Shown in pieces: positions 32,755 to 59,235 of a stretch of DNA of 64,000 bases. A program made the position numbers and the translations under genes. The notes under the pieces were generated by a model that saw only the letters and a program-made list of their open reading frames with translations, was not told the DNA's origin and searched no databases. Within the stretch, counting starts at the first letter, position 1. Each line of letters starts with the position of its first letter. The stretch is from positions 186,001 through 250,000 of the forward strand of contig JARYMT010000002.1 of assembly GCA_029906985.1 (NCBI GenBank), given 5' to 3'. The DNA comes from Microgenomates group bacterium (GTDB lineage: Bacteria; Patescibacteriota; Microgenomatia; UBA1406; GWC2-37-13).

Positions 32755-33027
32755 ATGCCAGAAACCCCACCAGAATCTGAATCACAAGAAATCTTTTCAT
32801 CCCAAAACGAGATGGTGGCTTTGCAGGTAAGAATGGCATTGTATGGCGAGGCTTTAAATCCGCAGAAAAAAGACCTGCCAAAAGTTGAGGAAGGCCAACT
32901 AACCAATCTTGAAAAAACCATTAAAATCGCGGCAAACGGCTCAACTTTAGAGCGGTTGTTATGGTGGGAAAAAGAATGGCGGGCGCAAGTAGCTGCTGAT
33001 TCTTCTCTTGCCAATCTAACCGAATAA
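32755..33027 (+). CDS. N-terminal piece of interrupted large gene
   Basis: 90 residues ending at TAA 33025-33027. The reading frame continues after this stop without shift into the 33058-34668 reading frame. The piece aligns with the start of the metallophosphoesterase at 55328-57244: LYGEALNP with LGKEALDP, and STLERLLWWEKEW..VAADSSL with STRERQKVVGVAADKL. The stop therefore falls inside a conserved module. I treat it as the broken first part of one gene, although a short separate product is possible. Confidence 0.55.
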   Translation: MPETPPESESQEIFSSQNEMVALQVRMALYGEALNPQKKDLPKVEEGQLTNLEKTIKIAANGSTLERLLWWEKEWRAQVAADSSLANLTE

Positions 33028-33057
33028 CAAAAAGCCCAAAAACAATATCAAATCTGG

Positions 33058-34668
33058 GTGGAAAAAATGATTAGTTCTTTTTCCGCAGAAAGAAATAAAC
33101 CCCATTTACAAAAACTTAACCCCAGAAGAATTGGCGGTATTGATCTTTCAAATTTTAGTAGACAAACCTGTGACGCCATCTATCAACGTTATTTTCAAAG
33201 CCAACAAGAAACCGCTGATGTTGTTGTTGTTGCCCAAAATGGCCAAGAAAAACTTTATGTTCCCTCTCAACTTAATAAATTTATTGATGATGTAATCGAA
33301 GCTTACCAGGGAAATTATGATCAGATTGTTGCTGATTTAGACAGTATCAAATGGTACGCCGGTATCTTTGGCGCAGCAAGAAAAGAAGAACAAGGAAAAC
33401 AACCATTAGACGTTCATGCTAATGACATTATCAAAGATTTAATCCACACCAAAATCACTATTTCTAACGCTCAAAAACGCAAAGAGCTAGTTGAAAAAGC
33501 CAATGAAACAAAAACCATCGACAACCAACCAACTATCCGCGCCAACTTCCAAAACCCTCAAGAACAAGCCGCTCTCACCTGGCTTTGGGAAGCAGGAAAA
33601 ATTGGAAGAAAAACAATAAAACAAAAACCGGTTGAAAATACTGACAATGAATCAATAAACGACTGGGAAAAACTCAAAAAAAGGTTTATTCAAAACGCTT
33701 TTGATAAAGATCAAGCAATAATCAAATGGGGAATAGCCGAAAGAATAAGAAATATTTTTCTTAACTCAGACATCGCCAAAAGCAATTTACCTGTTTATTA
33801 TCCCGGTGCCCGGGGAGATATTATTATACCGCTTCTTTTTACCGATGCTGACAACTTTGTTTTTGTTGATTTTGATTACGCCGATGACCAAGGAAATCTA
33901 AATCCTGACGCGCTGCCGGACCGGTTGATTAAAGAATATGGCGGAAAAATTATTTCAATAGAACAACAAGGACAATTAAAAAAAGGAGGTAAAAGGATAG
34001 TTAAATATGAGCTAATGGGCAAACCTAGGACTATAGTCTGTTATGCCGAAGATGCCACAAAATTTAATCCGGCGGAGTTAAGTAATGGTTTTTCTTTTGG
34101 TTTAATTATTGCTCCATCAAAAACTTCAGAAACAATAGGAGAGTTATACGATGTAAATTATTTATCTCAACTCTATCAAAATTTAGCCTTAGGTGGCTTT
34201 ATTCACTGGAAACCAACTCATATTTTGAATCCGCAAACAATTGGCTTTAGGGAAATTATCAAACCATCATCTAACGAAGATATTTATGGACTTTATCAAA
34301 AACAACAAGAGGTTCCACAGTTAAATCAAATTATTTCCTTTGATACCAATTTATGGATTTGTTTAAATATACCAAATGGGGTTTATGAAGGATCAATAAG
34401 TGATAAAACGCTGGAAGTTTTTGAAAAAGAATTGTCAAATTTAAGAAATTCCTATGCAAATTTTCCGCCACAAATCCAACAAGAAGTTGTCGCTGTTTTA
34501 AAAGATCGTTTTGATTACGAAAAAATGACTGAGGAAGAAAAGCAAATATTTTTAAGATTTGGCAAACAATATGGACTTGAGGATGCTCAAAAAATGGCTG
34601 AATATTTAGAACAAATAAAAAATGTAATTTCCAAGGTCTTTCCAGAAATTAAACAAATTTATCCCTAA
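33058..34668 (+). CDS. Methyltransferase-like protein with island N-module (broken gene, main part)
   Basis: 536 residues counted from a GTG at 33058; the same frame is open from 33028. Residues about 40-125 match the metallophosphoesterase protein (IYQRYF, FIDDVIEAYQGNYDQI, IKWYAGIFG against IYERYF, FIDDVLKAFNNDFDLI, FQWFSGIFG). A Rossmann-type part follows: PVYYPGARGDIIIPLLFTDADNFVFVDFDYA (about 246-276) looks like motif I and the acidic strand of class I methyltransferases. TAA at 34666-34668 again ends the frame where homology-like sequence continues. The gene seems to be decaying. Confidence 0.6.
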   Translation: MEKMISSFSAERNKPHLQKLNPRRIGGIDLSNFSRQTCDAIYQRYFQSQQETADVVVVAQNGQEKLYVPSQLNKFIDDVIEAYQGNYDQIVADLDSIKWYAGIFGAARKEEQGKQPLDVHANDIIKDLIHTKITISNAQKRKELVEKANETKTIDNQPTIRANFQNPQEQAALTWLWEAGKIGRKTIKQKPVENTDNESINDWEKLKKRFIQNAFDKDQAIIKWGIAERIRNIFLNSDIAKSNLPVYYPGARGDIIIPLLFTDADNFVFVDFDYADDQGNLNPDALPDRLIKEYGGKIISIEQQGQLKKGGKRIVKYELMGKPRTIVCYAEDATKFNPAELSNGFSFGLIIAPSKTSETIGELYDVNYLSQLYQNLALGGFIHWKPTHILNPQTIGFREIIKPSSNEDIYGLYQKQQEVPQLNQIISFDTNLWICLNIPNGVYEGSISDKTLEVFEKELSNLRNSYANFPPQIQQEVVAVLKDRFDYEKMTEEEKQIFLRFGKQYGLEDAQKMAEYLEQIKNVISKVFPEIKQIYP

Positions 34669-35176
34669 CCTATCCGAATTACACTAGAACAAAATCCGGA
34701 ACAATTTAAAGCTAATCTTTTTGAACTGATAAAACAAAAAAACCTCAACTTTTTAAAATCTGGGAATTTGCTAAAAGTCAAGGAATAGTATCTGACGAAA
34801 AACTTGAAATTAACCCAAAAACCTGGGTTAGTGAAAGCGATGATAAAGATAAAATTGTTCTTGGGATTGCGCCAATGTCAGCAAATGAGAAATATCGGAT
34901 AATTTTTGATGATCAAACTTTTACTTTTAATTATGAAGATGAAGTAATTTATCGCCTTTCTCATGAACTAAGTCATAAATTGCTTTATTGGATAATAGAA
35001 AAGCAAATCAACAATAATCCGATTATCTAAGACGATATTTAGATTTCCTTGCCAATCCAAATTATACTTCAATCAAAGAACAATATGGTTTAGTAACTCT
35101 TGACGAAAAAACCGCTGAAGCTCTTTTTCAAACAATTGAACAAGAATTAAAACCTGTTTTAAATCACATCAAATAA
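34669..35176 (+). pseudogene. C-terminal HExxH domain remnant of the broken gene
   Basis: Reading on past the TAA at 34666 gives ITLEQNPEQFKANLFELIKQKN. A frame change near 34755 then gives KIWEFAKSQGIVSDEK..YEDEVIYRLSHELSHKLLYW with a zinc-peptidase motif HELSH (34964-34978). A second frame change near 35025 gives RRYLDFLANPNYTSIKEQ to TAA at 35174-35176. So this region is the end of the same gene, coding for a putative zinc metalloprotease domain, cut by one stop and two frameshifts. Confidence 0.6.
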
Positions 35177-35185
35177 TTAAAAAAA

Positions 35186-35665
35186 TCAATTCACCTTAAC
35201 ACCTGTCGCTGTTGGAACCGGCGCTGGAGGAAGAGAAGTTTCTTCTGATTGAGATTGATTTTGTTGTTGACTTGGTTGATTGGCGTTTTTTTGTTGTTCT
35301 AAATCTTTTTGGATTACTGGAAAAAGATAAGCCGCCCGAAAGTTTAATAATGCGGTGGCAATTTCAACTGTCAAATTAGGAATTTTTTGCTGGAAAAAAC
35401 GATCAAGTTCTTCATTGGAAACATCTTTATCCAACAAAACATCAAGTTCTTTTTGTTCATCTTCTGATAAGAGAGTAATTAAATGAGTATTAATTGCTTC
35501 ATTAACTTGTTGAAGCAAAAACGCCCGCATTTGCTCCCGGTTTTTATCAGTAATATTTGGGTCCTTTCTTGCCTCAATTAAATCATCAACAAAAGAAAGA
35601 AGAGCTGCCTGATCTTTTAAATTTTTAACATCAATTTTTGGTTGGTTTGGATTTTGATCTGCCAT
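35186..35665 (-). CDS. Small helical cytoplasmic protein, unknown
   Basis: 159 residues, no signal peptide. Helical throughout (LLSFVDDLIEARKDP, LSEDEQKELDVLLDKDVSNEELDRFFQQKIPNL) with a Gln/Asn/Ser-rich disordered tail. The pattern of acidic helix, spacer and FFQQKIPNL resembles small uncharacterised helical domains common in CPR proteins. It lies 93 bp after the GTG-initiated gene upstream and is read towards the broken gene. Function unknown. Confidence 0.6.
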   Translation of the reverse strand: MADQNPNQPKIDVKNLKDQAALLSFVDDLIEARKDPNITDKNREQMRAFLLQQVNEAINTHLITLLSEDEQKELDVLLDKDVSNEELDRFFQQKIPNLTVEIATALLNFRAAYLFPVIQKDLEQQKNANQPSQQQNQSQSEETSLPPAPVPTATGVKVN

Positions 35666-35758: not shown

Positions 35759-36166
35759 CTATTTTGGCGCATTAGTGATTTTTTCCTTCGCTTGTTTTTC
35801 TTCATCTTCAGTTAATGGAATAAAATTATTGCCATCTAGTTTGTAAAATTTACCATCAATAATAAAACATAAAGTGTTTACAATAACAAATCCTTTATCG
35901 GCCTTGATTTCATGAATTGTTCCATTTACTGCCACTAATTTTAAATCAGGAGCATCTGGAGAAAGTTTTCGTAAACGAATACCATATTGGGGATCGTTCC
36001 ATATTTGATAAGGAACATCTCTTCCGTTTAAATTACAAATTTGACCTCCCTCAATTAAACCATTTTTTTCTTCTAATAATTCTAGATCACCCACTTTTAA
36101 CCTAGGTAAAGAATCAAACCATTCTTTTTCCGGATGAAGAGGGGGTTTTGTCTCCGTGCCTGCCAC
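35759..36166 (-). CDS. Unknown protein or detached C-terminus of the 2246-aa protein
   Basis: 135 residues from a GTG at 36166; there is no ATG. The frame is the same as that of the giant gene upstream, whose TAG stop (36184-36182) lies only five codons before. Sense codons join the two without a gap (EIEE, stop, EAEVGVAGTETKPP). So this could be the giant protein's former C-terminal domain, reachable only by stop readthrough, or a reinitiated separate product. The sequence is beta-rich (YQIWNDPQYGIRL, KGFVIVNTLCFIIDGKFYKL). No family recognised. Confidence 0.5.
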   Translation of the reverse strand: MAGTETKPPLHPEKEWFDSLPRLKVGDLELLEEKNGLIEGGQICNLNGRDVPYQIWNDPQYGIRLRKLSPDAPDLKLVAVNGTIHEIKADKGFVIVNTLCFIIDGKFYKLDGNNFIPLTEDEEKQAKEKITNAPK

Positions 36167-36181: not shown

Positions 36182-39100
36182 CTATTCTTCAATTTCTTTT
36201 CTTATTCTTTCCATCTCAGCTTCAACCTTTTGTTTATATTCCTCATTGAATCTTTTTTCAACTTGTTGATTAAGTTTATTCAGAAGCGCTTTGGTTTTTT
36301 GATCTTCTTCAGTTAAATATTTAAAAGTCGTTAATTGAGCTTGTAGTTCTTGTGATTGGGTTCTTTGTCGTTCCAGGTGGGTTTTTTCATTAGGATCGTT
36401 ATCAGAAAGTTCATTAATCTTATTCGATAATTCATCAATCTGCGCCTGTGTCTCTAATATCCTAGTATAAACATTTATATATTCGGTGTATGTTTCTTTA
36501 TCATCGCCCTGTAATTTAGCTACTTCTTCTTCCTGAATTTTTATTATTATTTGCATCTCTAAATTTCTTCTGATATTAACTAAAATTATCTCTCTTGCTT
36601 TTTGTTCTAATTTTTGTTTATCAGCTCTTAGTTCGTTAAGCTCATTTTCTGAAAGTTTTGGTAAGCCTAAATTTTCTAACAATTGATTTATTTTCTCAAG
36701 TTTTCCTCCTGTTAAAAATTCAACTACTTGCTCTTTATCTCTTTCATAATCTTCTTTTTTATAATCTGCTTTTATTTCAGGTTCAGTGGGAATTGACAAA
36801 TCTTCTTGAGCTTCAGCTTCAGTTTCTAAAATTCTTCTCATCTCTTCCATTCTTTCTCTTATAATTTTTTCTCTCTCTTCAGATTCTTTATTTTTTTCCT
36901 CATCAGTTAAAGATGCCTCAGCTGCTTGTCTTAAGGCTAAATCACGCGCTAACTCCTTTATTTTTTCTTTATCCTCTAATGCCTGTTCTACCTCTTTTGG
37001 TTTTCTACCCAATTGTCGAGCAATCTCGTTGATTGATTGTTTTTTCTTTTGTTTATCTGGTAAACCTAAAATTTCAGCTAATCTTTGTTCTTGTTGTTGA
37101 ACGGTTCTTTCTAGTTCTTGTTTTTTTTGTTTTTGTTCCGCAGTTAAAGCGGTAACTGGTTTAGAAGAGGGTTGTCGTGAGTCTGTTGGTTGAGATGTTG
37201 TTGAGGAAGAGGGTTTAGTTTTTACAACACTTTTCTCAATATTTTCTCTCACTGGTATAAACCATAATGATGGTAATGAAAAAGGTGTTGGTGGTGCTTC
37301 TAAAACAAAAGTCTTAACTTTGTCCTCAACTACTTCTTGAACGGTGCGAGTAATAGAACCAGTTAGCTCTAAAATCGCCTCTCTTGGCTCTCCAACTATT
37401 GTTGTTAAATCGCCGGTTCCACTAATGGTTGCTAAATGATTAAACACTCCCTCAGGTGAAGTAAAACCAGCAACAAAATAACCAGTTCTTCCATTATCAC
37501 CAATATTAAAAACATCTAACCAACCGCGATATTCTGAAGCCAAAGAAACTGGCTGACTACCAACACTGATACCTGCTTGTTGAAGATGATCATTTAACTT
37601 ATCTTGATTTATAAGCATTTTTGCTAATTCAGCAACAGTTAAATGGTGACCATCAGGCATGACAATTGGCGCTCCATTAGATAAAACTTCACTATTATTC
37701 GTTGTATCAAGCCACAGATCATGAGAAGAACCCATTCCATCAGAATTCATATCGATTCGCAAATGCCCCAAACCTTTAACAAAAATCCCCAGTTGCATTC
37801 CGCCGTTGGCATCTGCCACTTGTTCCACCGGTTGAAAATGAACTCCATCAATACTTCCTTGACCTGTAGGACCAATAAAATGAACTCCTAAATTACCATT
37901 AGCATCACGATAAACCTCATTATAAAGCCTTAACTCTTGGTAATCTGATCCGCGCGTAGCGTTAGTCCACCAAACTTGTCTTTCTGGTGATGGCCGCAAA
38001 ATTTTTTCCCAATCAGCTCTTGCCTGATCGCCGCTGACTATTTGCTCACCTGCGCCTTGATAATTTATATTATGATGAAGTGATGAATGAACTGTATTAG
38101 GATCAATTATTAAATTACCATGATCAACCTGGGCGTCATCAATTAACGTCATCCCTGTTTTATTTTCTACTAAATCATAAGTGCCATTATGATTATCAAC
38201 CCAATGAGTGCCATCTGGAGTTTGAATATTTAAGTTTCCAATAGTTTCTGTATGAAAAGTACTTGGCGTGGTAAAAATTGTCTCTGTTTGGGAAATTGTA
38301 TGAGAGCCAATTACTCTCTCTGTTAATGAAATATTAATTCCTTTGCTTGCAAGCATTTCCTCTAAAATCGATCTTCCATTGCTGGCATCAATTAAAACCT
38401 GACCATTACTATCTTGCAAAACCAAATTAAGACTGCCATCACCATCAATATCAACCGCGCCTAAATGATATCCGGAAACTCCAAAAACCACTTCTCCTCC
38501 AACCGCTTTATTTACCAACACAGTATCAGTTATTCCATCATGATTAAAGTCTGCCTGCTGAAAATGATAACCAGTTGGCATTTGAACTTGTGTATTCCCC
38601 CCTAAATTGACTGTTTCTGCTGGTGGAAATTGAAGATGAAGCAAGCGATCAATCCCTAAATTATGAGCTAAATATGGCGCTTGAATTACTCCCCGCTGTA
38701 AGGGTGAAAGATCAGCAATAAAATGACCGCCTCTATCAACTTCAATCGGAACATCACCATGAAAAACTTCTCCCCAATCGCCTAAATACTCTCTAATTCC
38801 CTCACCAAAATGTAGAATCCCTCCTGCTTGACCAATATCGTGAATAAGATTACTTGCCTCTCCTATCAATATTTTTCCGCCTAAACCAGCCACCACTGAC
38901 ATACCCAACATTTGACCAGTCCGTTTCCAAGTTAATCCAGCTAGTCTTCTTGCTGATCCTTCAAGAGATTTGTCTTTAGTTATTCCCAAATCAACAAAAA
39001 ATTCATTAACTATTTTTTGAGCTTCATCCTGGCTTAAACCATTTTGCTGAACCAAGACATTGACTAGTTTTTCTTTAGTACTACCAATTCGCAGCTGAGC

Positions 39101-42100
39101 CTCAAAAACCGCTTGAGCTTGAGCTAATTTTGACAATAATTCAGGATTGGCTTGAGAAAGTTTCGCTGCTCCATCTAAGATTGCTGATCGCAAAGCAGTT
39201 AATTGCTCGTTTCTTTTGTCAAAATCATAGCTAATAAAGTTTTGCGGCACCTCAATATCACCCACTCCCAAAACTCTTTTTCCCCGCCGAGTTGACAAGT
39301 CTGTCGTTCGCATTCGCGCCTGAGCATGAGCAATTGCCAAAAGAAGTCTTTGTTGTTCCTCAGCTGATAAATTTTCTTTAGCTAATAAATCAGTAATTTC
39401 TTTTGTTAACTCAGTAGCCGATCTTTGGTCAACCAACAAAGCCTCAAACTGTTTTCGCAAAACAGCATTTTCTGCTGATCCTCGACCTTGTCCTGATTCC
39501 CGGGAAACCTGAACAAAGTCTTGCCAAACTCTTCCGGCAATTCCTTTTAATCTTCCTTTACGAGCAACAGCTGGTCCTTCTCGTAAACCAGCGGCTAAAG
39601 TCATTGCTAAAGTTCCCGTTGCCGGATTAAAACCAACAAACCTCATCGCAAAACTTCTTCCAAAACGAAAACCGCCAGCTAAACCACCAAAAATATAAGA
39701 GCCACCAAAATAACCAATATCTTTTAATAATTCAACCGCTCTTGGCAGATTGGAAAACTGAAAACCTGTTTCTTTGCGGTAATTTCTCTCCATCATTCGC
39801 CGAATCAGTTTTCTTTGCAAACCAGTTAGCTCAATATCACCCCTGGCCGCCTCATAACGTCCTTTACCCAAATAAATTTTGAAATCAAGCTCGTCCCATT
39901 TAGTTTTTTGTGGATCTTCACCTTTTCTCTCCTGATAAAGTTGCCAGTAAGCTTTTCCTGACTGGTCTTTTTGTTGAAGAAAATCAACTAAACCTAAAAG
40001 GTTTGATGATAGTTCTATTCCTTCTAAGGCTTTTTTCACCTCAGGGGATAATTTATCATAAACCTGCCCTCGAAAATATTCGTTTAATGTTTTTAAAGCC
40101 ACCTCTTTTGTCATCTGTCCTTGACAAACCGCTAAGGCTAACTCTTTTATTTTTCCTTTAAAACCAGCCACTACTTGTTGATCAACACCTGACTGCTCTA
40201 ATAAAAACCGTTGTTCGCCAATTTCTTCAGAGATTGGTTTTAAACCGGCGGTCTCTTCTAAAGCAAATCTTTGCGCGAAGTCGGTCTGATCTTTTAAGCC
40301 GTGAGAAGTAATATTAGTAATTATCTCAGCTGGCGCCTGAGTTTCCAACCACTCCCTTGCTAAAACCATCTCGCTTGTCTGGCTTATGCCAAAAACTTTA
40401 GCACCAATATTTCGGAAAAAAAAGCCGATTTTTCTTCCTAAAGACTGTTGCTTTTTCAATCTTTTAGCTTCTTCTAAAGCCTGGTCCATTAACTCAGGTG
40501 ATAACTCAATTGGTACGCTACTATCAATACCAAGTCTTCGTCTGGCTGCTTCAGTTAAACCCATTGAAAAACGATTTGCCTGATCATCAAACCAAGAAGA
40601 AAAAATTGTGTTCTTCCAAAAGTTTCTTATAAAAGCTCTCGGATGCAAAAGTATTTTCCAACCCAAAGCTGGCTTATCACTGGCCCGATAATGCCTTGCC
40701 AAAGCGCCAACTTCTTGATTAACTCGTTGTTCGTCGCTAACAATAGCAAAGTTAAAGGTAGCTGGGAATTCCGCTTCAGGGGGTGGCGGTTGACCAGAAG
40801 GTTCTCTTCTTTTACCCGGTACCGGCGCCGGCGGTGGGTTATCTTCTGTTCCAGTTGGTTCACCTTCTTTTCTTACAGGAGCAGGAGATAATTCTCCTAA
40901 TCCTGAATCGTCTAATTCTTTGCCACCTGGTCTTATAACACGTTTTAATGCTTCGTGTTGAGGTGTGTATGGATGAGTTAAGTCATCCTCTTCAACTTCC
41001 CCACTTTCTCCACCAGGTTTACCAACACTTAGCGGTTCAGAGTCTTTTTTTGAATCCCTCCCTGTTTTTTGTACAAATTTTTTATAAAAAATTTTATCCG
41101 GTACTTCTAATAATTCCGGCGCATAGGAAATTCTTCTATCCATTAAGTCTGCTCCTTTTAAAGCATAATCCAAAAGATTTTGAGGATCTTGACTTAAAAG
41201 ACGGCTCATTTCTTTTTTATGTCTTTCACTTAAACCAACCATCACTCCTTGATAAGCTTCAATTAAAGAGCTAATATCTTGTTCTTGCCTAATTTTTCGG
41301 AGTATCTTTATCATTTCTACCTGAGGTTCACTACCTTGATACCTACCTTGATGATCTAAATAACGAATTGCCTCAATTGCTGTTTGGTAAAATCTTCTTC
41401 TTAAATCAACCAATTGGCGTGAGGCTTCATCACGATCTTTTTGACTTGATTTAGAATCATTAATTATTTTCTCCAACATTTGCATCTGTTGACGATATGT
41501 AAACTCTCCTGTTTCTTTTATATCTAAAAGCCTATCAGCAACTAAAGTAAAAGCATATAAATCTTTTTTAGCAACAGAAATTTTTTCTTTTTTACCTTCT
41601 GGGGTGGTAATAAAAATTTGCTCATAATTGCCCTCAACAAAAGCTGGTGAACCAATATGAGAAACCTCTGTTTTAACTGCCCGACGAAAATCAGGTAAAG
41701 AATAAGAAGCTAACCTTCTTTTATTTTCTTCCCGTAGTAAATTAACTTTTAGCGCCTCTATTCCCATTAATACTAAATCCTGACTTGGTGGTTTTAATTG
41801 AATTATTAGCTGATAAATTTCATCGTTTCCTTCAAGATAATCACCGTTATAACGTAATCTTTTTTCAACCTCGTCTATTACCCGACATTGGTAATCAAAA
41901 TCAGTTTCGTCTTTTTTTCTTTGGATTTTTGTTTTTGCTTGATTAACTAATTGCTCTGCTTGTTCATATTCTAAAGAATGCTTTTTAGAAAAATCTTCTA
42001 TGCTAACTCCTGTATCAGTATCTTTGTAATACGGCGGTTTATGAATTACTCCTTCTAAATCAGCTACTTCTTCTAAACTCTCTACAGAACCATTTTTTTT

Positions 42101-49031: not shown

Positions 49032-52000
49032 ATGGTTGACGGAAGAAGACAAGATGAAATCAATCATCATCAGGATGAAAAAAACCTTATCCAAAGATTA
49101 AATCATAAAACCGGTTTGCAATTTACCACCGATGACTTTAAAGAAATCTATAACCTCCCAAAATCAAGGGAAGAAAAAATCAAAAAAAAGGCCGAGGAAG
49201 AAAAATGGAACCTTTTTTCTTATTATCAAGAAATTATTAATCTTCATTCATTAAAAAGAGCCACTCTTGCTTATCAATTTCCTGAAATGCTTGAGTGGAT
49301 TTTTCCTGTTGAGCATCCCAACGAAAATATACCCGAAAAAGAAGCGCTAATCGCTCTTGCTATCCAGGAAAGGTGGAATCTTGAAAAATATTTTAAGCAA
49401 TATTGCCAAGCTTTAATAAAAGCTGGAAAAAAACCACCACAATTACCAAATGAAAATGATGTTGATTTGTATAGAAAAATTTATAAATCAATGTTATCTA
49501 GAAAAGAAAGGCAAAGACTAAAAAAAGCGGGTGGGGTATTTGGGATTTCTGATCTTCCATCACTTGTTTACGAAACTTATTCTCAGGTTGTAAACGAACA
49601 ACAACAATCTCAGCCCACAGTTAATTCACTCATTAACTCCCAAAACCCTTTTGATAGAACTATTCTTCGTCTTGATGATTATTCTATAGTTACGTACCTG
49701 AATGAATTAAATAAATACTTAGTTGTAATTCAGGAAATTCAAAAAGATCCGTCACATAGCGCCAATATCCCTACCGCAGAAGCAATTATTAGAGAAAGAA
49801 TTAATCAAGTAGCTCACCAGTCGATATCTTTAATTCTTGCTCTAGATAAATTTGGGGCTTATAGACTATCAAAAAAGCAAAGAGAAATTTTAACAAGTGT
49901 TCCCGATAACGCTGATCTTTCGCTTATCTTTGGTTATGACCCCCGTTTAGATCCTATCTTATCAAAAGAAGAAAAAGAAAAAAAACAAAGAATAATTAAA
50001 GAAAGAAAAAAATGGTTTGATGTAATCCAGTCAGTGCTTGATGATTTAAAACAAAGCAAAAAAGCTTTACCTTTTGTCATTCATTTACCTAATGAAGAGA
50101 AAAAAATTGGTGCCGAACTACCGGAATTAAGAAGCTTATGGGAAGAAGCCGCTCGCAAATTTAATAGACGTCAAGCTCTTACTCGCCTTCTTGAAATTGC
50201 TGCTGGAGCCGTAGCAGCTTATGGAGCTTCAAACTTGCCATTAGTTAAATTTGCCGCCCAAGAATCAAAAATTATCTATCAAGAATATCGACGGGCAATT
50301 AATCAATTATTGTCCGAACCGCCTCCTTCCGGAATACCAGGAAAGATAAGAAGATTAATGGAAATAGCTAAAACCACTATTAATGCTCCCTTATCTTTTT
50401 GGAAAGAAATCGGTCAGGATGTGGGTATTAATTTTTTAAGCCAATATCGAGAAGAAATAAATAAAACTCATTTTCCTGATTTAGCGATCAGTGAAGCTTC
50501 AGGAACTCAACTTACTGAACAAGATTTTATTAAACCGATAGACAAACCTCCACAAACTGCTGGCGAATTAACTGCTCTTTTAGAAACTGAGTTAGGTAAA
50601 AGAAAGTTTATTAATGCCTTAGTTTATAACTTCTATAAAATAGGCAGTTTTAGATTTCCAGATGAAGATAGATTTAGTTATATTCCTGAAGATGAGCTTA
50701 ATGAAAAACTAGCTCTACTAATTGACAAAATGCTACCACTTTTAAAAAGAGAAAGCCCTGATAAAAGACTTGACTCCCTTAATCCCACCTCAAAAAAACA
50801 AGGCGCTCTTTTTGACTGGCAAGAATTAGTAATTGAGGTTCTCAAAAACTACTCTCCAAATTTACCCGAAATTAATCTGCTTGAGCCCTATTTTAATGAA
50901 CAGGGTTATTATATAGATGCTCCATTAGAATATTGCCGTAAAAGATTAGGATATCGTGGTGTTGAGCAAATAATGATAAATTTACTAATCAACAAGGAAA
51001 TAAGAATTAATCCGAGTGTTGTTGTCCGAAACCAGCAAGAGCTTTCAGATTTTTTACAAAATAATCCTTTAGATTTTAATTATTCTGCTTTTCAACAATG
51101 GTTAAATAATTATAATCAACTTTTTCCTGATGAAGAGACAAAGTGGCAGTTTGTCTCTTGGGCGCTTAGTCTTCAACAAACTGGCGAAATTGATTTGGAT
51201 TTAGTTTCAAAGTTTGTTGATTTATCAAGATTCCTTAAAAAAAATCCATTTTTAACCTCTCAAAACTCAACTGGTCAACAAACATTAATTCCCTTTTCCG
51301 CTATTGCTCTAGGAACAATTTATGAAGGTGCAAGAGAAAAGATTACTCGCCGGCAGTTTTTAAAAGCTGCTGCTGTTGGCACTGGCGCTTTAGCCACATA
51401 CTTAAGTTTAGAAAAACTTAATCAGGTCGTTGAATCTCCTTATCAAGCCACTACTGAAATATTGCAGGGACTAAATAGTAATCTAAAAGAGGAAGCAAAA
51501 AGAAGATTGACACCAATTCTTAATCTTCATTTTAATGGTTTTCCTTCTGCCTTAATTGTCAAAACCAGCAATGGTCAAGAAATAGGCCGTTATTTTCAAC
51601 AAAATCGAGAAATTCTTCCCTTTGATCAGATACCGCAAAGGTTTAAAAATTTTTTAACGGCTGTTGAGGATAAAAATTTTTTTGATCATGATGGTGTTGA
51701 CCCATTGGGTATTGTTAGAGCTTTAACATCGATTGGAGGAAAAGGTGGCGGCTCAACTCTAACCCAGCAACTTATTCGTTTATTTTGTTTTAGTCAAAAT
51801 GAGCTTCTTCAAGAACAAACTAACTCTGAATTGGCTTATCAAAGGAAAGCAGTGGAAATTATTGCCGCCCTTATTTTCGAAAAAAAATGGGAAGAATATT
51901 TTATTAATCAGGGTTTTAATGAAAGTGACGCTAAAAAATTAACAAAAAATAAAATTTTGGAACTTTATCTTAACAATGTTCCTTTAGGTCCTAATATCTA

Positions 52001-53384
52001 CGGTGTAAAAGCAGCTAGTAAATTTTACTTTAACAAAGAACCCAGTCAATTAACCGAAATCGAGGCCGCCTTTTTAATTGGTTTAATTCAAAATCCGGTT
52101 GGTTATAACCCACTTTCTACTTCTCGATATGATTCAGCTGGTCAACTAATTATTACTGCCAATCCTGATGAGCAAGGGAGAATTCTTCTTAACGATGCTC
52201 ATCCAGCGATGAGAAGACTAAGACGAGATATTATTCCTGTTTTGCGCGAACAAAATGAAATTTCTGATGAGGTTGTCAGAAGCGTTAATGAACAAACTAT
52301 TATTATTACTCCCCCTCAATCATCAGAACATCAAGATTATGTTAATATGGCTGTTAACCAGATTTTAAATCAACTTTCTCCTTCGCAAATTTACAGTGGT
52401 CTTGAAATCATTGTTCCTATTGATATTGCTTTGCAAACAACTTTGCAATCAGAAATATTAAACAAAGTTCAACAAGAAGCCAATAACGGCGTAACAGAAG
52501 GAGCGGTTGTAATTTTAGATGGAGAAACAGGAGGAATTTTAGCCGCTACCGGTGCAAAAGTATCAGAAAGCGGTGAGGTTGTGACTGATAATAGTGTTTG
52601 TTGGACCGCTAATTTTCCTGGCTCAACTGTAAAACCGTTCACTTATGCTAGAGCGCTTGCTGAAGATAAAATTAACCAAAACTCTTTACTTACTGGCTCA
52701 ACTTATCGAGGTATTAACAATGCCGGTGAAAGAAACTATTCGCCTCAACCATGGCCAATTGCTTTAGCCTCCTCATTAAACACCGCTGCCCAACAAACTG
52801 CTGATAGAATCGGAGCGACTCTTTTAAGTAAAACATGGCAAGATTTAGGATTAAGCCCCCCTTCAATAGCTGATATCTCAACTAATCTTACTTTAGGCAC
52901 TCAGCCAGTTACACCAGTGGCTCTTGCTGGCGCTTATACTCCTTTTGCCAACCAAGGCCGTCTTAACCCTCCAACTTCAATTACTGAAGTTAGACAAAAC
53001 GGAAGAACAGTTTTTACTAACAGCCAACCACCAACTCAAGTATTCTCACCAAAAGTCGCCGATCTTATTTTAAATGCCCTAATGAATCCTGAAAATAAAA
53101 TTTTACCTCGGCCAGAAACGTGGCAAGTATTAAGAGATGGTAATGGTTGGTATTTTGCTAAAAGCGGTACCGAAAGTAATGCAAGTGGGGTACAAAGAGC
53201 GGTCTGGATGACTGGTGGCATGATTCATCCTCAAACCGGAAAAAAATATATTGTTGTTGCTTATCTTGGAACCCATAATCCAGCCGGAATGAGTAGTACT
53301 GTCTGGGGAGTTTCTACTGCTGGTCCTTTCTGGCGGCAAGTAATAGAATTATTAAAACAACAAGGTGGGCAAGAAACAAATTGA
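49032..53384 (+). CDS. Class A penicillin-binding protein with giant N-terminal extension
   Basis: 1450 residues from the ATG at 49032; the frame is open from about 48928 and probably joins the 48019 gene. The first 765 residues are mostly helical and unrecognised. Then TRRQFLKAAAVGTGALATYLSL (about 771-792), a twin-arginine-type membrane segment. Next a GT51 transglycosylase: EDKNFFDHDGVDP near 878, GGSTLTQQL, LELYLNNVPLG, and AAFLIGLIQNP. Last a transpeptidase with SxxK (GSTVKPF, S near 1198), SxN (SSLNTA) and KSGT near 1376. So it can polymerise and cross-link peptidoglycan outside the membrane while about 1070 residues remain inside. Active-site motifs are intact. Confidence 0.88.
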   Translation: MVDGRRQDEINHHQDEKNLIQRLNHKTGLQFTTDDFKEIYNLPKSREEKIKKKAEEEKWNLFSYYQEIINLHSLKRATLAYQFPEMLEWIFPVEHPNENIPEKEALIALAIQERWNLEKYFKQYCQALIKAGKKPPQLPNENDVDLYRKIYKSMLSRKERQRLKKAGGVFGISDLPSLVYETYSQVVNEQQQSQPTVNSLINSQNPFDRTILRLDDYSIVTYLNELNKYLVVIQEIQKDPSHSANIPTAEAIIRERINQVAHQSISLILALDKFGAYRLSKKQREILTSVPDNADLSLIFGYDPRLDPILSKEEKEKKQRIIKERKKWFDVIQSVLDDLKQSKKALPFVIHLPNEEKKIGAELPELRSLWEEAARKFNRRQALTRLLEIAAGAVAAYGASNLPLVKFAAQESKIIYQEYRRAINQLLSEPPPSGIPGKIRRLMEIAKTTINAPLSFWKEIGQDVGINFLSQYREEINKTHFPDLAISEASGTQLTEQDFIKPIDKPPQTAGELTALLETELGKRKFINALVYNFYKIGSFRFPDEDRFSYIPEDELNEKLALLIDKMLPLLKRESPDKRLDSLNPTSKKQGALFDWQELVIEVLKNYSPNLPEINLLEPYFNEQGYYIDAPLEYCRKRLGYRGVEQIMINLLINKEIRINPSVVVRNQQELSDFLQNNPLDFNYSAFQQWLNNYNQLFPDEETKWQFVSWALSLQQTGEIDLDLVSKFVDLSRFLKKNPFLTSQNSTGQQTLIPFSAIALGTIYEGAREKITRRQFLKAAAVGTGALATYLSLEKLNQVVESPYQATTEILQGLNSNLKEEAKRRLTPILNLHFNGFPSALIVKTSNGQEIGRYFQQNREILPFDQIPQRFKNFLTAVEDKNFFDHDGVDPLGIVRALTSIGGKGGGSTLTQQLIRLFCFSQNELLQEQTNSELAYQRKAVEIIAALIFEKKWEEYFINQGFNESDAKKLTKNKILELYLNNVPLGPNIYGVKAASKFYFNKEPSQLTEIEAAFLIGLIQNPVGYNPLSTSRYDSAGQLIITANPDEQGRILLNDAHPAMRRLRRDIIPVLREQNEISDEVVRSVNEQTIIITPPQSSEHQDYVNMAVNQILNQLSPSQIYSGLEIIVPIDIALQTTLQSEILNKVQQEANNGVTEGAVVILDGETGGILAATGAKVSESGEVVTDNSVCWTANFPGSTVKPFTYARALAEDKINQNSLLTGSTYRGINNAGERNYSPQPWPIALASSLNTAAQQTADRIGATLLSKTWQDLGLSPPSIADISTNLTLGTQPVTPVALAGAYTPFANQGRLNPPTSITEVRQNGRTVFTNSQPPTQVFSPKVADLILNALMNPENKILPRPETWQVLRDGNGWYFAKSGTESNASGVQRAVWMTGGMIHPQTGKKYIVVAYLGTHNPAGMSSTVWGVSTAGPFWRQVIELLKQQGGQETN

Positions 53385-53509: not shown

Positions 53510-54703
53510 CTACATCATCCCTCTTTGTTGCCCTCCGGATTCTTTTTTTGATGAGACATAAACTAAAACTGCTAATAGACCAAAAATACCAAGAACAATT
53601 GGTAAGCCTTTTTTTGCTGTTTTTTCTATTTTCATTTTTCTTAAAATTCTTTTTTCCTCATCTCCCAGATTTGCCAAATTGCTAACTAATTGTTGATATT
53701 CAGACAATAATGAGTTGGTAGTTTGCTCATCTATAAATCCCGCTTCTTTTATTTTTGAAATAAATTGGTTAAATTTTTCTTGATTAAATTCTACTCTTAA
53801 ATCAGTTCTTGTTCCTTTCCCTTTTTTAACTTCTTCTTTTATTTCAATGCACCCATTAACCACCTCTCTAAATGTTTCAGTTATCACCCCAATTGGATTT
53901 TCTTCTAACTGTTTTTCAATTTGTTGTTTTTCTTCATCGGTTAAAGTCTTACCTTCATTAACTATGTTGACAACCTCTCGTGCAATTGGTTGAATTTGAG
54001 CTTTTACCTGATCGGGAATAGGCTCTCCATTTTCACCTTTAAGTTTTCCCCTTTCTTCTTGAAGTTTTTTTTGTTTTTGCTCTGCTTCTTCTTTCATCCT
54101 TTCTAATTGATCTTTTTTCGATTTGATAAGAGCCTTCTGTTCTTTAGACAAATCATTCGATGAAAGTAGATTATCGTAACGTTTAATTTGTTCATCAAAA
54201 TTAACTACTCTTTGTCCAATAATACTAATCTCAATATCATATCCTAAAGCGCAAGTGAAAGGATCCTGACTTTGTTTAAATTCAGTTATCACTTCATCAA
54301 AACCTTTTCTTTTTTCTTTCCCTCCTGCTCTTTCTCCAATTATTTTTGTTAAAATTTTTAAAGCTTTTTCTGCCTCTTGCGGAAGAATTTTTCTCGCCTC
54401 AACTTGCCTGTTTAAATCTTCTTCTATTGTTTCTAAAACCAATGATGCTGCTTCTCGTCCTAAAGAACTGCGTAATATCTCAATAACAAAAGCTCTTCCT
54501 CCTGCCAACTCTTGTAAAGCATCTCGGGCTTTATCTGGTTTATAAATTCCTGCATTTGCTAAACTTGCTTCTTGAGGTCCGGCTAAAGGAATGGCTGCTG
54601 CGTTCTGTGTTCTATTATCTGGAGAAACTCCTCCTCCTTCTGGACCACCAACAACCGCGCCTACTCCTGATGTTAACTCTGTATTTCCACTACCATCTGC
54701 CAT
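53510..54703 (-). CDS. Tail-anchored coiled-coil protein, unknown
   Basis: 397 residues. A Gly/Asn-rich disordered start (about 1-50), helical domains rich in Lys/Glu (about 55-150), a coiled coil (about 170-225), further helices, and one C-terminal transmembrane segment (LPIVLGIFGLLAVLVYVSS, about 367-386) ending in a short polar tail. It is a tail-anchored protein with the body in the cytoplasm. It lies convergent to the PBP gene and 53 bp after the small paralogue gene upstream on the same strand. Function unknown. Confidence 0.65.
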   Translation of the reverse strand: MADGSGNTELTSGVGAVVGGPEGGGVSPDNRTQNAAAIPLAGPQEASLANAGIYKPDKARDALQELAGGRAFVIEILRSSLGREAASLVLETIEEDLNRQVEARKILPQEAEKALKILTKIIGERAGGKEKRKGFDEVITEFKQSQDPFTCALGYDIEISIIGQRVVNFDEQIKRYDNLLSSNDLSKEQKALIKSKKDQLERMKEEAEQKQKKLQEERGKLKGENGEPIPDQVKAQIQPIAREVVNIVNEGKTLTDEEKQQIEKQLEENPIGVITETFREVVNGCIEIKEEVKKGKGTRTDLRVEFNQEKFNQFISKIKEAGFIDEQTTNSLLSEYQQLVSNLANLGDEEKRILRKMKIEKTAKKGLPIVLGIFGLLAVLVYVSSKKESGGQQRGMM

Positions 54704-54756: not shown

Positions 54757-55281
54757 TCAAATCGCCTTATATGCCAAAACTTTTTTTACTACTTCTTGCG
54801 CTTCTTCAAATCTTTTTTCCTGCACTAACTGAGTCACCATATCCAAAGCTTTTTTTTCATATTTTTGCTCATATTCTTTCATCACCCGATAAACCACCGG
54901 TGCCAGTTCTGGATGCCGATCGTCCAACTTGACTGCGTTTTGATAAAGTTGCTCAACAGTCATTCCCGGTTTGATTAAATCTAAAGTTAATCGGGCAATC
55001 TCCTGAATCTGTGCTTTAGGTGTTTTTCCAGCTTCAGCCAATGCTTTAATGATCTTTAACACCTCAACTTCAATAAATTTGCGAAAATCTTCAGCTTTGG
55101 TAAAGTCATAACTTTGTTGCGGACTAGAGGAATTATTATTTTGAGTTACTGGTGGTTGATTGGTTAAAGAAACTTGATTTTGTTGATTATTAGTCGGTGA
55201 AATATCAACTATCGGCGCTTTATTTGGATCCGATGAAGCCTGAACTTTTTGCCCAGCGGGTGAAACATAGGTCATTTGCAT
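54757..55281 (-). CDS. Small helical protein, paralogue of 57535-58032
   Basis: 174 residues. An Asn/Gln/Pro-rich disordered first half and a helical C-terminal domain of about 105 residues: FRKFIEVEVLKIIKALAEAG, ARLTLDLIKPGMTVEQLY, KLDDRHPELAPVVYRVMKEYEQKYEKKALDMVTQLV. The same domain, about 60 percent identical by eye, forms the protein at 57535-58032. The metallophosphoesterase gene lies 46 bp upstream on the same strand. No family recognised; possibly an adaptor of the island's larger proteins. Confidence 0.7.
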   Translation of the reverse strand: MQMTYVSPAGQKVQASSDPNKAPIVDISPTNNQQNQVSLTNQPPVTQNNNSSSPQQSYDFTKAEDFRKFIEVEVLKIIKALAEAGKTPKAQIQEIARLTLDLIKPGMTVEQLYQNAVKLDDRHPELAPVVYRVMKEYEQKYEKKALDMVTQLVQEKRFEEAQEVVKKVLAYKAI

Positions 55282-55327: not shown

Positions 55328-57244
55328 TTAAACCTCAAGTGATTGTTGAGTTGTAGTCGGTGAACCGGTCTTTTGGCTAGGTAAGTATTTGATTACAAAT
55401 CTGTCTGTTTTTTCATCATAAATTAATTCAGGATAATATTCTGGTCTGTCATCCATTTTATAGGAATAATCTATATTAATAATCATTCCATTACAAAACA
55501 CTCCTCCTCCCTCTTGAATATGACCAAAAACCACTTTCTTTACCTCTCCACCCTTTTTTCTTGCCTGCTCATTTAAACCGTCAATCATTTTTTGTGCCTT
55601 TGCTTGATCGTCTCTTATTTCTTCCCATTGGCGGTCACGTACCCAAAAAGGGCCATAAATTGAGCTTTGGGGGAAATGTGCTTTATTCCATGCTGCTAAT
55701 TTTTTTGTTATATCATCCCATTGGCTTTTTTGCACCAATCCTCCTCTGTCTCTTATTTTAGCAATTTCTCTTAACATCTTTTCAAATTCATCAAACGCCT
55801 CCATTCCGCCTTTTCTACTTTGAGTAAAATCAAAAAGACTACCATCATCTTTTGTTACCGGTATAGTATGGGCTAAATAAACATCATTAACTACGGCATA
55901 ACATTTACCATAACGAAGAAGAAAATCATACCATTCTCTTAAAAGCGAATTTTGCGAGTTCATAATAGCTTTTCTAAACTCATCATAATTATCACCGCTC
56001 ACCTCTCCTTGCCATTGAATTTCACAAGCCTCTAAAATTTGATCACCACCATCGTTTAACCAATCTTGGGCCCTTTCAGGACCAAGAAGCATTGCCGCCA
56101 AAAACTTAACATCATGATTGCCTAAAATATATAAACCTTCTCCTTTTTTGACACACTCCATCCACGCATTAATGCTTTCTCTAAAGTTATTGGGATCAAA
56201 ACCGTATTGTCGATTTTGTAATCTAAAAAAATATTTAGGATCCATAAAATCACCTGTGCCCACATTAAAATAACCTGGTATTGGTTTTGCTCCTTTTCCA
56301 TGAAGGTCGCCAAACAACCTTACTTTTGGTCTGTAAAAAATATGTTCTTTATCTATCACTCTTTGATTAAGCAACTCAATTCTATTATCTAAATTGTCCT
56401 CTTCTCTATCATCACTACTGGCTTGATTATCAGCGCCTGTTGTTGGTTGGTTTTCTTTATCTTTGGCATCTTTTTTCACTCCCACATACTCCAAAATCTT
56501 TTTTTCATCAGTGTTTAGATTGTTAGCTCTTATTATTGGTTTTCCATCTTTGTCTTTTTCTTGAGTTTCAAAATTAGCTTTTCTAACAACCTCATCAGGA
56601 CTTTGTTTAAATTGAATCTCTGCCGCTAGTAAATGAGTGGTTAACTGCGAACCATCAATCCCAAAAATCCCGGAAAACCACTGAAAAACATCAATGTTTG
56701 ATCTTATTAAATCAAAATCATTATTAAACGCTTTTAAAACATCATCAATAAACTGATAAAGATCAGAATTTTTAGTCTCTCCTTTAAAATATCGCTCGTA
56801 TATTTTTTTTCTAATATCATCTTTACCTGCTTTTGAAATATCATCGATTCCTAAATGGGTTAAAAAAAGATTTAAAGTTTCTCTCCACCTTTGAGCTTTT
56901 TGAGAATCAAAGTTTTTTTGATTGGTAAAATCCTGGCCCAAGACTTTTAATACCCGCTGACTCCAATTGTCAACCGCCTCATCTAATTTATCAGCGGCAA
57001 CACCAACTACCTTTTGTCTTTCTCTGGTTGAAGCATCACTAAAAACCTGATAATCGTCTCTTCTCTGCTCAAAGTCTTTAATATCCTCTTTTTTAACTTC
57101 AGTTAAACCAGTATATTCCGGATCTAAAGCCTCTTTGCCTAAAAGGAGTCTAATATGAAGACCGTCATAATAAGAAGAAAAAATGTCTACTCTCTCTGAT
57201 GATTTTAATTTTTCCCCTGAGGGGAGATTATCTAATTCATTCAT
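55328..57244 (-). CDS. Calcineurin-like metallophosphoesterase with island N-module
   Basis: 638 residues, cytoplasmic. The N-terminal 230 residues form the module also seen in the broken gene at 32755-34668 (LGKEALDP, VAADKL, IYERYF, YQFIDDVLKAF, FQWFSGIFG). A disordered linker follows (about 265-290). The C-terminal part is a PPP/calcineurin-type phosphoesterase: LFGDLHGKG, VGTGDFMD, YILGNHDVKF, with later histidines in YLAHTIPV and VVFGHIQEGG completing the dinuclear metal site. It should hydrolyse a phosphomonoester or diester; the substrate is unknown. The -10 (57256-57251, TATAAT) is six bases before the ATG. Confidence 0.85.
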   Translation of the reverse strand: MNELDNLPSGEKLKSSERVDIFSSYYDGLHIRLLLGKEALDPEYTGLTEVKKEDIKDFEQRRDDYQVFSDASTRERQKVVGVAADKLDEAVDNWSQRVLKVLGQDFTNQKNFDSQKAQRWRETLNLFLTHLGIDDISKAGKDDIRKKIYERYFKGETKNSDLYQFIDDVLKAFNNDFDLIRSNIDVFQWFSGIFGIDGSQLTTHLLAAEIQFKQSPDEVVRKANFETQEKDKDGKPIIRANNLNTDEKKILEYVGVKKDAKDKENQPTTGADNQASSDDREEDNLDNRIELLNQRVIDKEHIFYRPKVRLFGDLHGKGAKPIPGYFNVGTGDFMDPKYFFRLQNRQYGFDPNNFRESINAWMECVKKGEGLYILGNHDVKFLAAMLLGPERAQDWLNDGGDQILEACEIQWQGEVSGDNYDEFRKAIMNSQNSLLREWYDFLLRYGKCYAVVNDVYLAHTIPVTKDDGSLFDFTQSRKGGMEAFDEFEKMLREIAKIRDRGGLVQKSQWDDITKKLAAWNKAHFPQSSIYGPFWVRDRQWEEIRDDQAKAQKMIDGLNEQARKKGGEVKKVVFGHIQEGGGVFCNGMIINIDYSYKMDDRPEYYPELIYDEKTDRFVIKYLPSQKTGSPTTTQQSLEV

Positions 57245-57250
57245 TTTTTT

Positions 57251-57516: not shown

Positions 57517-57534
57517 TAAATTTATTTTTTGGAT

Positions 57535-58032
57535 TTATTGATATATTGCTTTATAGTTTAAGATCTTCTTTACCATTGCTTGCGCTTGATCATAATTACC
57601 TGCCCTTACCATTTTAGTTACTTCATTAAGGGCTTTTTTTTCATATTTTTCTTCGTACTCTTTCATCACTTTAAAAACAACCGGAGACAGCTCTGGATAT
57701 GTATCATCAAGTTTGGCGGCATTTCGGTAAAGCTCTTCAAGACTCATCCATGGTTTAATAAGGTTAAGGGTAAGTTGAGCCATTGCCTGGATTTTTTCTT
57801 TTTGTGTTATCCCCTCTTTAAGCAATTGTTTTATAATTTTAAGGACCTCTACCTCAATAAATTGACAAAATTTCTTTGATGTAGAAAGATTAAGAGAAGA
57901 TTTATCATTCGAAGAAGTTTGAGATGTTTGGGTTGTCAAGTTGGGAAGGGGATTGTTTCCCGAAACCTTCTGGGAATTAACTGGATTATTAATTATTTTT
58001 TGATCATTTGAATTTGTATTAGAGTCGCTCAT
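57535..58032 (-). CDS. Small helical protein, paralogue of 54757-55281
   Basis: 165 residues with a Ser/Asn-rich disordered start and the same C-terminal helical domain: FIEVEVLKIIKQLLKEG, AQLTLNLIKPWMSLEELY, KLDDTYPELSPVVFKVMKEYEEKYEKKALNEV. The two genes also share the upstream string TTGTGTTAATTTTA, so coding and control regions were duplicated together. They bracket the metallophosphoesterase gene. Unknown function; the tight conservation of the KLDD..PEL..VV..VMKEYE part suggests a binding surface. Confidence 0.7.
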   Translation of the reverse strand: MSDSNTNSNDQKIINNPVNSQKVSGNNPLPNLTTQTSQTSSNDKSSLNLSTSKKFCQFIEVEVLKIIKQLLKEGITQKEKIQAMAQLTLNLIKPWMSLEELYRNAAKLDDTYPELSPVVFKVMKEYEEKYEKKALNEVTKMVRAGNYDQAQAMVKKILNYKAIYQ

Positions 58033-58117
58033 AAAATAAAATTAACACAAAGTTGTTTTTTTTACAATAATTGTTTTCAAAAGCTAAATAAATTATCTGA
58101 TAATTTTCTTAATTACT

Positions 58118-58963
58118 TTAGGGACCCCAATATTCAAAATCACGTCTGCCATCTTTTATTATTCCACAACATCCCCCAAAAAAAGCTCTCGATAATATAT
58201 CATTAGGTAGTATCGCAAACCGAGGAAAAAAACTGGTAGCTCCTGTTTCAGGATCAGGCTGTCTTTGATAATTTGCTGGATCCAACAATATTCCAGAACT
58301 TGGTTTAGCTAATTTTTCGGGACCGGGATTTATAATTATAAAATTATGCATTTCATCCGGATCATTTACCATCTCGCCTCCATCATAAACATTAAGAACT
58401 CCAAAAGAAATCATATAAGATTCGACACCCATCAAGGTTAAAAATTGGTGAACTAAAGCGCTTATTTCGGTACAAGTAGCCGATGCCGGCCCAAATCGAA
58501 CAGAACTTTTAAAACTGCTTAAATCAACTTCAACTGTTCTTTCTTGATATCGTTCTTTATTTTTGGAAGCAGTTTCGTCGTCGATTAAACCAAAGGTTGA
58601 TAGAACGATTCCTAGTTCTGCTTTTAATAAAGCCGCCAGTCTAGTTGAATTAATTCCCTCTATCGGTAGACCTAATTTATTTAATCTTTTTTTATACATT
58701 TCGCAAAAAGTTACAAATTCTTCTTTAAAATTTGAAAAATCAAGCCTTAAAAATAACCTTCCGAAAATGTTTTTAAAGATTAATATACCCTCCGGTAGTA
58801 AACCTAAAATTATGCCAAAATTTATATGATTAGAATTTATATCATTAGGAGGTAGCCTTTCTCCAAAAATTTTATATGTGGGCGAAGCCATTGCCCTGTC
58901 AAAATGAATACGGCACAAAGCCTTACGAATCTCGTCATCTTCTTCGCCTAAGGCTTCGTCCAT
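58118..58963 (-). CDS. Transglutaminase-like cysteine protein (main part, frameshifted gene)
   Basis: 281 residues in this frame. A helical first half is followed by a papain-like/transglutaminase core: SATCTEISALVHQFLTLMGV (candidate nucleophile Cys), DEMHNFIIIN (His) and GILLDPANY (Asp), the expected Cys-His-Asp order. Such domains act as peptidases or cross-linking enzymes, in some cases on cell-wall peptides. Homology-like sequence continues upstream of the first ATG (DLKEVIREISIQVKIGQIDQRL), so this ATG is internal and the true gene begins at 59235. Confidence 0.6.
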   Translation of the reverse strand: MDEALGEEDDEIRKALCRIHFDRAMASPTYKIFGERLPPNDINSNHINFGIILGLLPEGILIFKNIFGRLFLRLDFSNFKEEFVTFCEMYKKRLNKLGLPIEGINSTRLAALLKAELGIVLSTFGLIDDETASKNKERYQERTVEVDLSSFKSSVRFGPASATCTEISALVHQFLTLMGVESYMISFGVLNVYDGGEMVNDPDEMHNFIIINPGPEKLAKPSSGILLDPANYQRQPDPETGATSFFPRFAILPNDILSRAFFGGCCGIIKDGRRDFEYWGP

Positions 58964-59235
58964 AAAGAGTTGGTAGAGTTTTCGTTTTTCTTCTAATGTC
59001 CCGTTTATATATATCTCCTCAACTGGTCTGCCTAAAATTGTTTGGAGCCTTTGATCAATTTGGCCAATCTTGACCTGAATACTTATTTCTCTTATTACCT
59101 CTTTTAAATCTTTGTCTTTATTATCAAAAAGTTGTTGCTCCCCTTGATCATTATCGGGAATTGCTTATCTGGTTGATGGTCGATCCCTTTTTGCCAATCT
59201 AATTTTGGTATTTCTTTTTGTATATTATCGTTCAT
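58964..59235 (-). pseudogene. 5' part of the transglutaminase-like gene, frameshifted
   Basis: From ATG 59235 the minus strand reads MNDNIQKEIPKLDWQKGIDHQPD and then runs into a stop (TAA). About 25 codons into the gene, near 59155-59165, a frame change gives DNDQGEQQLFDNKDKDLKEV, which is open into the 58963 reading frame. One indel therefore separates the two parts. Confidence 0.55.

What the first reader, a model, noticed from the sequence alone, without database searches (positions are those of the whole stretch)
32755..59235. Island of giant proteins with a shared N-module fused to different enzymes
Seen: the metallophosphoesterase (55328-57244) and the broken methyltransferase-like/HExxH gene (32755-35176) share about 200 N-terminal residues including IY-RYF, FIDDV and W--GIFG. 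Next to them are two paralogous small helical proteins, a PP2C-like 2246-aa protein, a 1450-aa coiled-coil protein, a tail-anchored coiled coil, a class A PBP with about 1070 cytoplasmic residues and a transglutaminase-like protein. One module carrying different catalytic heads, plus small adaptor-like paralogues, suggests a multi-part system. Inference: cell-wall or envelope control, or an effector set with swapped activities.
Basis: partly seen in the sequence, partly recalled or inferred. Interest (0 to 1): 0.72.

Follow-up and report, generated by a model that had tools for sequence, protein, structure and literature searches.

The report
Swappable-enzyme carrier system in Roizmanbacteria-type bacteria
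In a tiny uncultured bacterium, a conserved gene island uses one shared protein module to carry many different interchangeable enzymes beside a fixed set of partner proteins, which looks like an undescribed effector or conflict system and not a random cluster.

Summary
The N-module shared by the phosphoesterase (55328-57244) and the broken gene (32755-35176) is real (BLASTP E 7e-12) and belongs to a family of about 245 residues, found in 15 of 72 family genomes and 12 of 372 class genomes. Across 35 distinct members it is fused to unrelated, shuffled heads: DEAH helicase, PP2C, phosphoesterase, archaemetzincin, at least two further HExxH types, GNAT and several unknown ones. It co-occurs with two small helical families: A3 (35186-35665; Fisher p 1.4e-10, genus level p 5e-6) and A2 (the two paralogues). 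Of 35 N-module genes, 24 lie within 6 kb of A2 or A3. The phosphoesterase head rides on the N-module here but is fused to the tail-anchored partner in two relatives. I read it as a docking-module system that brings swappable enzymes to a membrane-tethered complex, probably an effector or conflict arsenal. Export, target and function are untested.

The parts
32755..35176 (+). Broken N-module gene: N-module + methyltransferase-like part (by eye) + HExxH metallopeptidase-like part; at least two in-frame stops and two frame changes; intact copies of its pieces exist in relatives
   Evidence: (1 TAA in the N-module)
35186..35665 (-). A3: small helical protein (159 aa) with proline-rich tail, encoded beside the giant protein and N-module genes
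35759..36166 (-). 135-aa protein; matches part of the giant protein of another genome (L076, 2215 aa), so a split or fused piece of the same system
   Evidence: E 4.4e-16
36182..42922 (-). Giant protein (2246 aa), conserved neighbour of A3; only weakly hydrophobic Gly/Ala-rich segments; relatives carry a C-terminal Ser/Thr kinase (L080) or phosphoesterase (L074)
43162..47514 (+). 1450-aa coiled-coil protein, divergent from the giant gene; similar proteins beside the giant in G027 (L118) and G029 (L071)
48019..48969 (+). 316-aa repetitive protein, solenoid-like by eye; no family and no relative among the first 267 fetched ORFs
49032..53384 (+). Class A PBP with about 770 residues before the last twin-arginine segment; related island PBPs in G015 and G032
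53510..54703 (-). TA: tail-anchored coiled-coil protein (anchor residues 366-384), usually encoded beside A2; fused to the phosphoesterase head in G006 and G015
54757..55281 (-). A2 copy 1: small five-helix protein
55328..57244 (-). N-module (about residues 17-254, nucleotides 56483-57196) + calcineurin-like phosphoesterase head (GDLHG, GNHD, GH motifs by eye)
57535..58032 (-). A2 copy 2: paralogue of A2 copy 1
58118..58963 (-). Transglutaminase-like protein (C-H-D motif by eye; no Pfam hit); membership of the system not shown

Best explanation
A multi-part carrier system. The N-module is a docking or sorting domain on which catalytic heads are exchanged freely. The small helical protein A2 and the tail-anchored protein TA form a membrane-tethered receptor or adaptor unit. 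A3 and the giant protein form a second, linked unit. Enzymes reach this complex either through the N-module or by direct fusion to a core part. The turnover and mosaic make-up of the heads (several peptidases, phosphatases, a helicase, an acetyltransferase, in relatives kinases) suggest that they act in a conflict with other cells or with viruses, more likely as effectors against a partner cell than as housekeeping. Shown: the N-module family, head swapping, co-occurrence, neighbourhood, the phosphoesterase-TA fusion and the C-terminal anchor. Inferred: physical docking, membrane recruitment and effector role. Export is not shown.
For: N-module family with diverse heads: 35 distinct proteins in 19 head clusters at phmmer E 1e-3, the largest (13) being a mosaic of shared domains; named heads. 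Four tandem N-module genes in G029. Co-occurrence in 72 family genomes: N-module with A3 14 of 15 against 4 of 57 (p 1.4e-10), with A2 14 of 15 against 9 of 57 (p 3.5e-8); collapsed to 34 genera p 5e-6 and 4.5e-5. Neighbourhood: 24 of 35 N-module genes within 6 kb of A2 or A3; 9 of the other 11 sit on contigs under 16 kb. In another family (f8) the N-module gene abuts a diverged A2 gene in 2 of 2 genomes. Phosphoesterase head homologous between the N-module form and the TA-fused forms (E 1e-18); TA domain in the fusions E 8.6e-12 and 4.7e-6. Giants carry a kinase (E 1e-31) or phosphoesterase (E 1e-13) at the C-terminus.
Against: No signal peptide-like segment or recognised secretion apparatus in the island. 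VirB4-like and VirD4-like ATPases are near universal in the family (70 of 72 and 69 of 72), so they do not track the island. No immunity gene recognised. A2 and A3 occur without detected N-modules in other families (f2, f5, f9), so the N-module is accessory to the core. A2 and A3 profiles were built from N-module loci, which favours finding them there. Neither fold model matched a known adaptor.
Confidence: 0.45

Rival explanations
1. Own-cell envelope or protein-state control: the same membrane-tethered scaffold collects phosphatases, kinases and peptidases that regulate the bacterium's own envelope, with the PBP as one client.
For: TA has a C-terminal anchor, so on established tail-anchor topology its N-part (and the fused phosphoesterase) would be cytoplasmic. 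PBP inside the island in G000, G015 and G032 with long N-terminal parts. No exporter in the island.
Against: Heads differ even between genera of one family, and the N-module is missing from most relatives (15 of 72). PBP is in 3 island loci only. One window member has decayed.
Confidence: 0.2
2. Intracellular defence: N-module proteins are stand-alone effectors recruited to a sensor core on phage attack, like effector-associated-domain systems.
For: The same logic is proposed for EADs in PMC7159879 (passages read): a shared adaptor domain, swapped effectors, the same effector fused directly to core parts elsewhere. Patchy distribution.
Against: PADLOC gave no convincing match in 10 proteins. 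No sensor NTPase identified. N-module not detected in giants or TA, so homotypic pairing is not seen. No relatives of the N-module in the phage searches tried, which says nothing against a defence role by itself.
Confidence: 0.2
3. A variable hotspot between conserved surface-protein genes and galT that collects unrelated genes; the N-module is just a common domain.
For: The flanks are conserved, and the island sits between cohesin/dockerin-like surface genes and a galT-like gene in several genomes.
Against: Co-occurrence persists at genus level; A2 beside N-module in another family; phosphoesterase-TA fusions; N-module and A2 in G032 also on a contig separate from its A3-giant locus.
Confidence: 0.1

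Closest known systems
Effector-associated domains (EADs) of NTP-dependent ternary conflict systems (PMC7159879; passages read)
   Same: Shared small domain coupled to many effector heads; the same head is also fused directly to a core part elsewhere
   Different: No MoxR-vWA, GTPase or AP-ATPase core identified; N-module not detected in the core proteins; found in a CPR lineage, a group that the paper left out of its statistics for want of information
Polymorphic effector or toxin families with a constant N-terminal trafficking domain, e.g. LXG proteins with small helical partners (recalled, not tested)
   Same: Constant N-terminal helical module, variable C-terminal head, small helical partner genes next door, tandem cassettes, a decayed copy
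   Different: No recognised secretion machine or immunity genes in the island; heads are proteases, phosphatases, helicases and acetyltransferases; partners include a tail-anchored and a giant protein
Evolved versus cargo effectors of type VI secretion (recalled, not tested)
   Same: Same activity either fused to a structural part or carried as separate cargo
   Different: No sheath, tube or spike proteins seen
Giant surface proteins of Vampirococcus lugosii, 1392-4163 aa (PMC8080830, passages read)
   Same: CPR cell with an outsized set of giant proteins
   Different: Those are described as membrane proteins for attachment; no shared N-module or swapped heads are mentioned in the passages read

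Membership tests
Effector-associated domain (EAD) conflict systems | One adaptor domain fused to several unrelated effector heads | tested here: met
Effector-associated domain (EAD) conflict systems | Same adaptor domain also present in a core component (homotypic pairing) | tested here: not met
   N-module profile finds no giant and no TA protein among the fetched ORFs
Effector-associated domain (EAD) conflict systems | Core NTPase (MoxR-vWA, GTPase, AP-ATPase) in the neighbourhood | tested here: inconclusive
   Pfam scans named no such core in the window proteins scanned; not every ORF of every locus was scanned
Secreted polymorphic effectors | Constant N-terminal module with variable C-terminal head | tested here: met
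Secreted polymorphic effectors | Linked dedicated export machine | tested here: inconclusive
   VirB4/VirD4-like ATPases are near universal in the family and do not track the island; none recognised inside it
Secreted polymorphic effectors | Export of the protein | not testable with these tools
   needs experiment
Known anti-phage systems (PADLOC) | Match to a PADLOC model | tested here: not met
   10 proteins; only weak coiled-coil and helicase matches
Tat-exported PBP | TatC in the genome | tested here: not met
   TatC in 4 of 72 family genomes, not in G000, G015 or G032
PP2C phosphatase (giant protein) | PP2C domain match | tested here: not met
Class A penicillin-binding protein (49032-53384) | Transglycosylase plus transpeptidase domains | tested here: met

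The most novel reading that the evidence does not exclude
A so far undescribed, Microgenomates-specific machine in which A2-TA and A3-giant units form a membrane platform that hands N-module-tagged enzymes into a partner cell: a CPR counterpart of an effector secretion system, with its own docking tag and partner proteins and the option of fusing enzymes straight onto the machine.
Probability: 0.22. Interest if true: 0.88.

Novelty: new variant of a known kind. Interest (0 to 1): 0.63.

Why it matters
How Patescibacteria act on the cells they depend on is largely open, and the searches run here found no description of an effector repertoire for Roizmanbacteria-type genomes. If the N-module is a docking tag, it is a handle for listing candidate effectors across Microgenomates: any protein with the tag is a candidate, and A2, A3 and TA are candidate machine parts. 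It would also add a lineage to the adaptor-plus-swapped-effector logic described for other bacteria.

Tried and rejected
Type IV pilus link: I first took the genes at 17.5-31.8 kb for pilus genes (notebook); Pfam and NCBIfam show cohesin, dockerin, fn3 and collagen-like surface proteins and a HepT/nucleotidyltransferase pair, so I dropped it. Linked type IV coupling protein (5648-7909): it and VirB4-like ATPases are near universal, so nearness is not association. Tat export of the PBP: no TatC. PP2C in the giant protein: not supported. N-module-like stretch inside the PBP: no match even with filters off. Fold searches: A2 (core pLDDT 82-93) had no Foldseek match at E <= 0.001 and only helical-bundle-level VIA Z (7.5 at rank 1, then RbcX near 7); the N-module model was poor (mean pLDDT 66, 4 sequences) and matched nothing. 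Phage or plasmid carriage: no relatives in viral contigs, PHROGs (0 of 19 members), phages (phosphoesterase protein) or plasmids (A2). Pfam and PDB searches left many heads unnamed. Literature searches gave no description of this island. Rows dropped before the count of 35 N-module proteins: L041 (same as L087), L027 (fragment of the protein also read in L082), and two weak 132-aa hits (L083_8624, L114_10410). In one search the pairs were represented by L041 and L027 instead, again 35. One of the 35 (L120) was found through A2, so it is not independent for the neighbourhood count.

Full report
WHAT WAS CHECKED. The window is G000:C9:186001-250000 of a 953-kb genome (98% complete). Named relatives are Ca. 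Roizmanbacteria, Ca. Woesebacteria and unclassified Microgenomates or Patescibacteria MAGs (titles). The N-module similarity is significant in a direct comparison (E 7e-12), and the module grows into a family of about 245 residues under iteration.

HEADS. In the fetched loci I count 35 distinct N-module proteins (four rows dropped, see Tried and rejected). After the module, the C-terminal parts form 19 clusters at phmmer E 1e-3. Supported heads: DEAH helicase with HA2 domains (L043, L037, L071); PP2C/SpoIIE (L034 E 6e-9, L032 E 1e-4); GNAT (L028 E 6e-4, just under the Pfam cut-off); archaemetzincin (L029 against PDB 3zvs E 5.5e-5; shared by L036 and L076); an HExTH/HExVH peptidase-like head shared by five proteins without Pfam name; a different HELQHH protein (L038); and the calcineurin-like phosphoesterase of this window. 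Kinase-like (L030), methyltransferase-like and OTU-like labels are mine by eye only. The largest cluster is a mosaic: one domain recurs in six proteins in different company, and L072 strings several heads together in 1473 aa. G029 has four N-module genes in a row.

PARTNERS. A3 (35186-35665) and A2 (the two paralogues) have no Pfam or NCBIfam match above cut-off. Of 72 family genomes, 15 have the N-module, 23 A2 and 18 A3 (family rows). N-module with A3: 14 of 15 against 4 of 57; with A2: 14 of 15 against 9 of 57; at genus level 13 of 13 against 4 of 21, and 12 of 13 against 4 of 21. Caveat: A2 and A3 profiles were built from N-module loci, and the genus collapse is only a crude correction for descent. 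Of 35 N-module genes, 24 lie within 6 kb of an A2 or A3 gene; of the 11 others, nine are on contigs shorter than 16 kb and two (G026, G027) are truly elsewhere. One of the 24 was itself found through A2. In family f8, where neither profile was seeded, the N-module gene abuts or overlaps a diverged A2 gene in both genomes. In f18 (G189, two tandem genes) neither was found. In f2, f5 and f9, A3 (and in f2 and f9 A2) sit by giant or other large proteins without a detected N-module, so the core is wider than the N-module.

ROSETTA-STONE FUSIONS. TA (53510-54703) is a coiled coil with a C-terminal anchor, usually beside A2. In G006 and G015 one protein joins the phosphoesterase head to a TA domain (E 8.6e-12 and 4.7e-6), and those heads match the window's head at E about 1e-18. 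The giant of G051 ends in a calcineurin-like domain (E 1e-13) and that of G038 in a Ser/Thr kinase (E 1e-31); the G051 domain did not match the window head in the pairwise test, so it shows the same type of activity, not the same head. The 135-aa protein 35759-36166 matches part of the G016 giant (E 4.4e-16).

TOPOLOGY. 33 of 35 N-module proteins have no segment of mean hydropathy 1.6 or more; the exceptions are L043 near its start and L073 at residue 457. Giants have only weakly hydrophobic Gly/Ala-rich stretches in most cases. So these proteins are cytoplasmic, or leave by a route without a Sec signal.

MECHANISM. The pattern of one constant domain, exchangeable enzymes, small constant partners, and the same head attached either to the constant domain or to the membrane partner is best explained by docking: the N-module substitutes for direct fusion. 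The rapid exchange, multi-head mosaics, tandem cassettes and one decayed member are what effectors in a conflict show. Whether the target is a partner cell, a virus or the cell itself is not decided here. No immunity genes or export machine were recognised in the island, and VirB4/VirD4-like ATPases are too widespread to be informative.

COMPARISON. The logic matches the published argument for effector-associated domains (PMC7159879, passages read), but the homotypic copy in a core part was not found and no NTPase core was seen. PADLOC gave nothing convincing. The N-module and A2 folds matched nothing clear, and the N-module model was poor.

The 2246-aa protein is not PP2C by profile. The PBP is related to long PBPs in the G015 and G032 islands, but PBPs in general are universal (72 of 72), so envelope control is not a strong inference.

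Noticed in passing
window 49032-53384 (residues about 375 and 767); L030:5554-8487; L120:12023-15127: All three island PBPs carry two twin-arginine hydrophobic segments, the second scored by Pfam as a TAT signal in the window, yet none of the three genomes has TatC (TatC in 4 of 72 family genomes). Use of these segments is unexplained.
   Followed up: partly
window 17501-27325: Cluster of surface proteins with cohesin, dockerin, fn3 and collagen-like domains next to the island; several have relatives beside the island in other genomes.
   Followed up: partly
window 28706-29507: HepT RNase toxin and nucleotidyltransferase antitoxin-like pair inserted in the surface cluster.
   Followed up: no
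window 28397-28693 and 29118-29507: A conserved 98-aa three-helix membrane protein and the neighbouring nucleotidyltransferase share a near-identical N-terminus (MY-GPFYFDTK), suggesting a small recombination or start-site duplication.
   Followed up: no
window 5648-7909: VirD4/TrwB-like ATPase, present in 69 of 72 family genomes; a second copy lies about 4 kb from a VirB4-like ATPase on contig C8 of the own genome.
   Followed up: partly
L149:510-3503 (G189): Two tandem diverged N-module proteins in a distant family with no A2 or A3 detected nearby; heads unknown.
   Followed up: no
window 12864-17453: 1529-aa protein with an N-terminal hydrophobic segment and a weak SprT-like peptidase match (E 0.025) near its C-terminus.
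   Followed up: no
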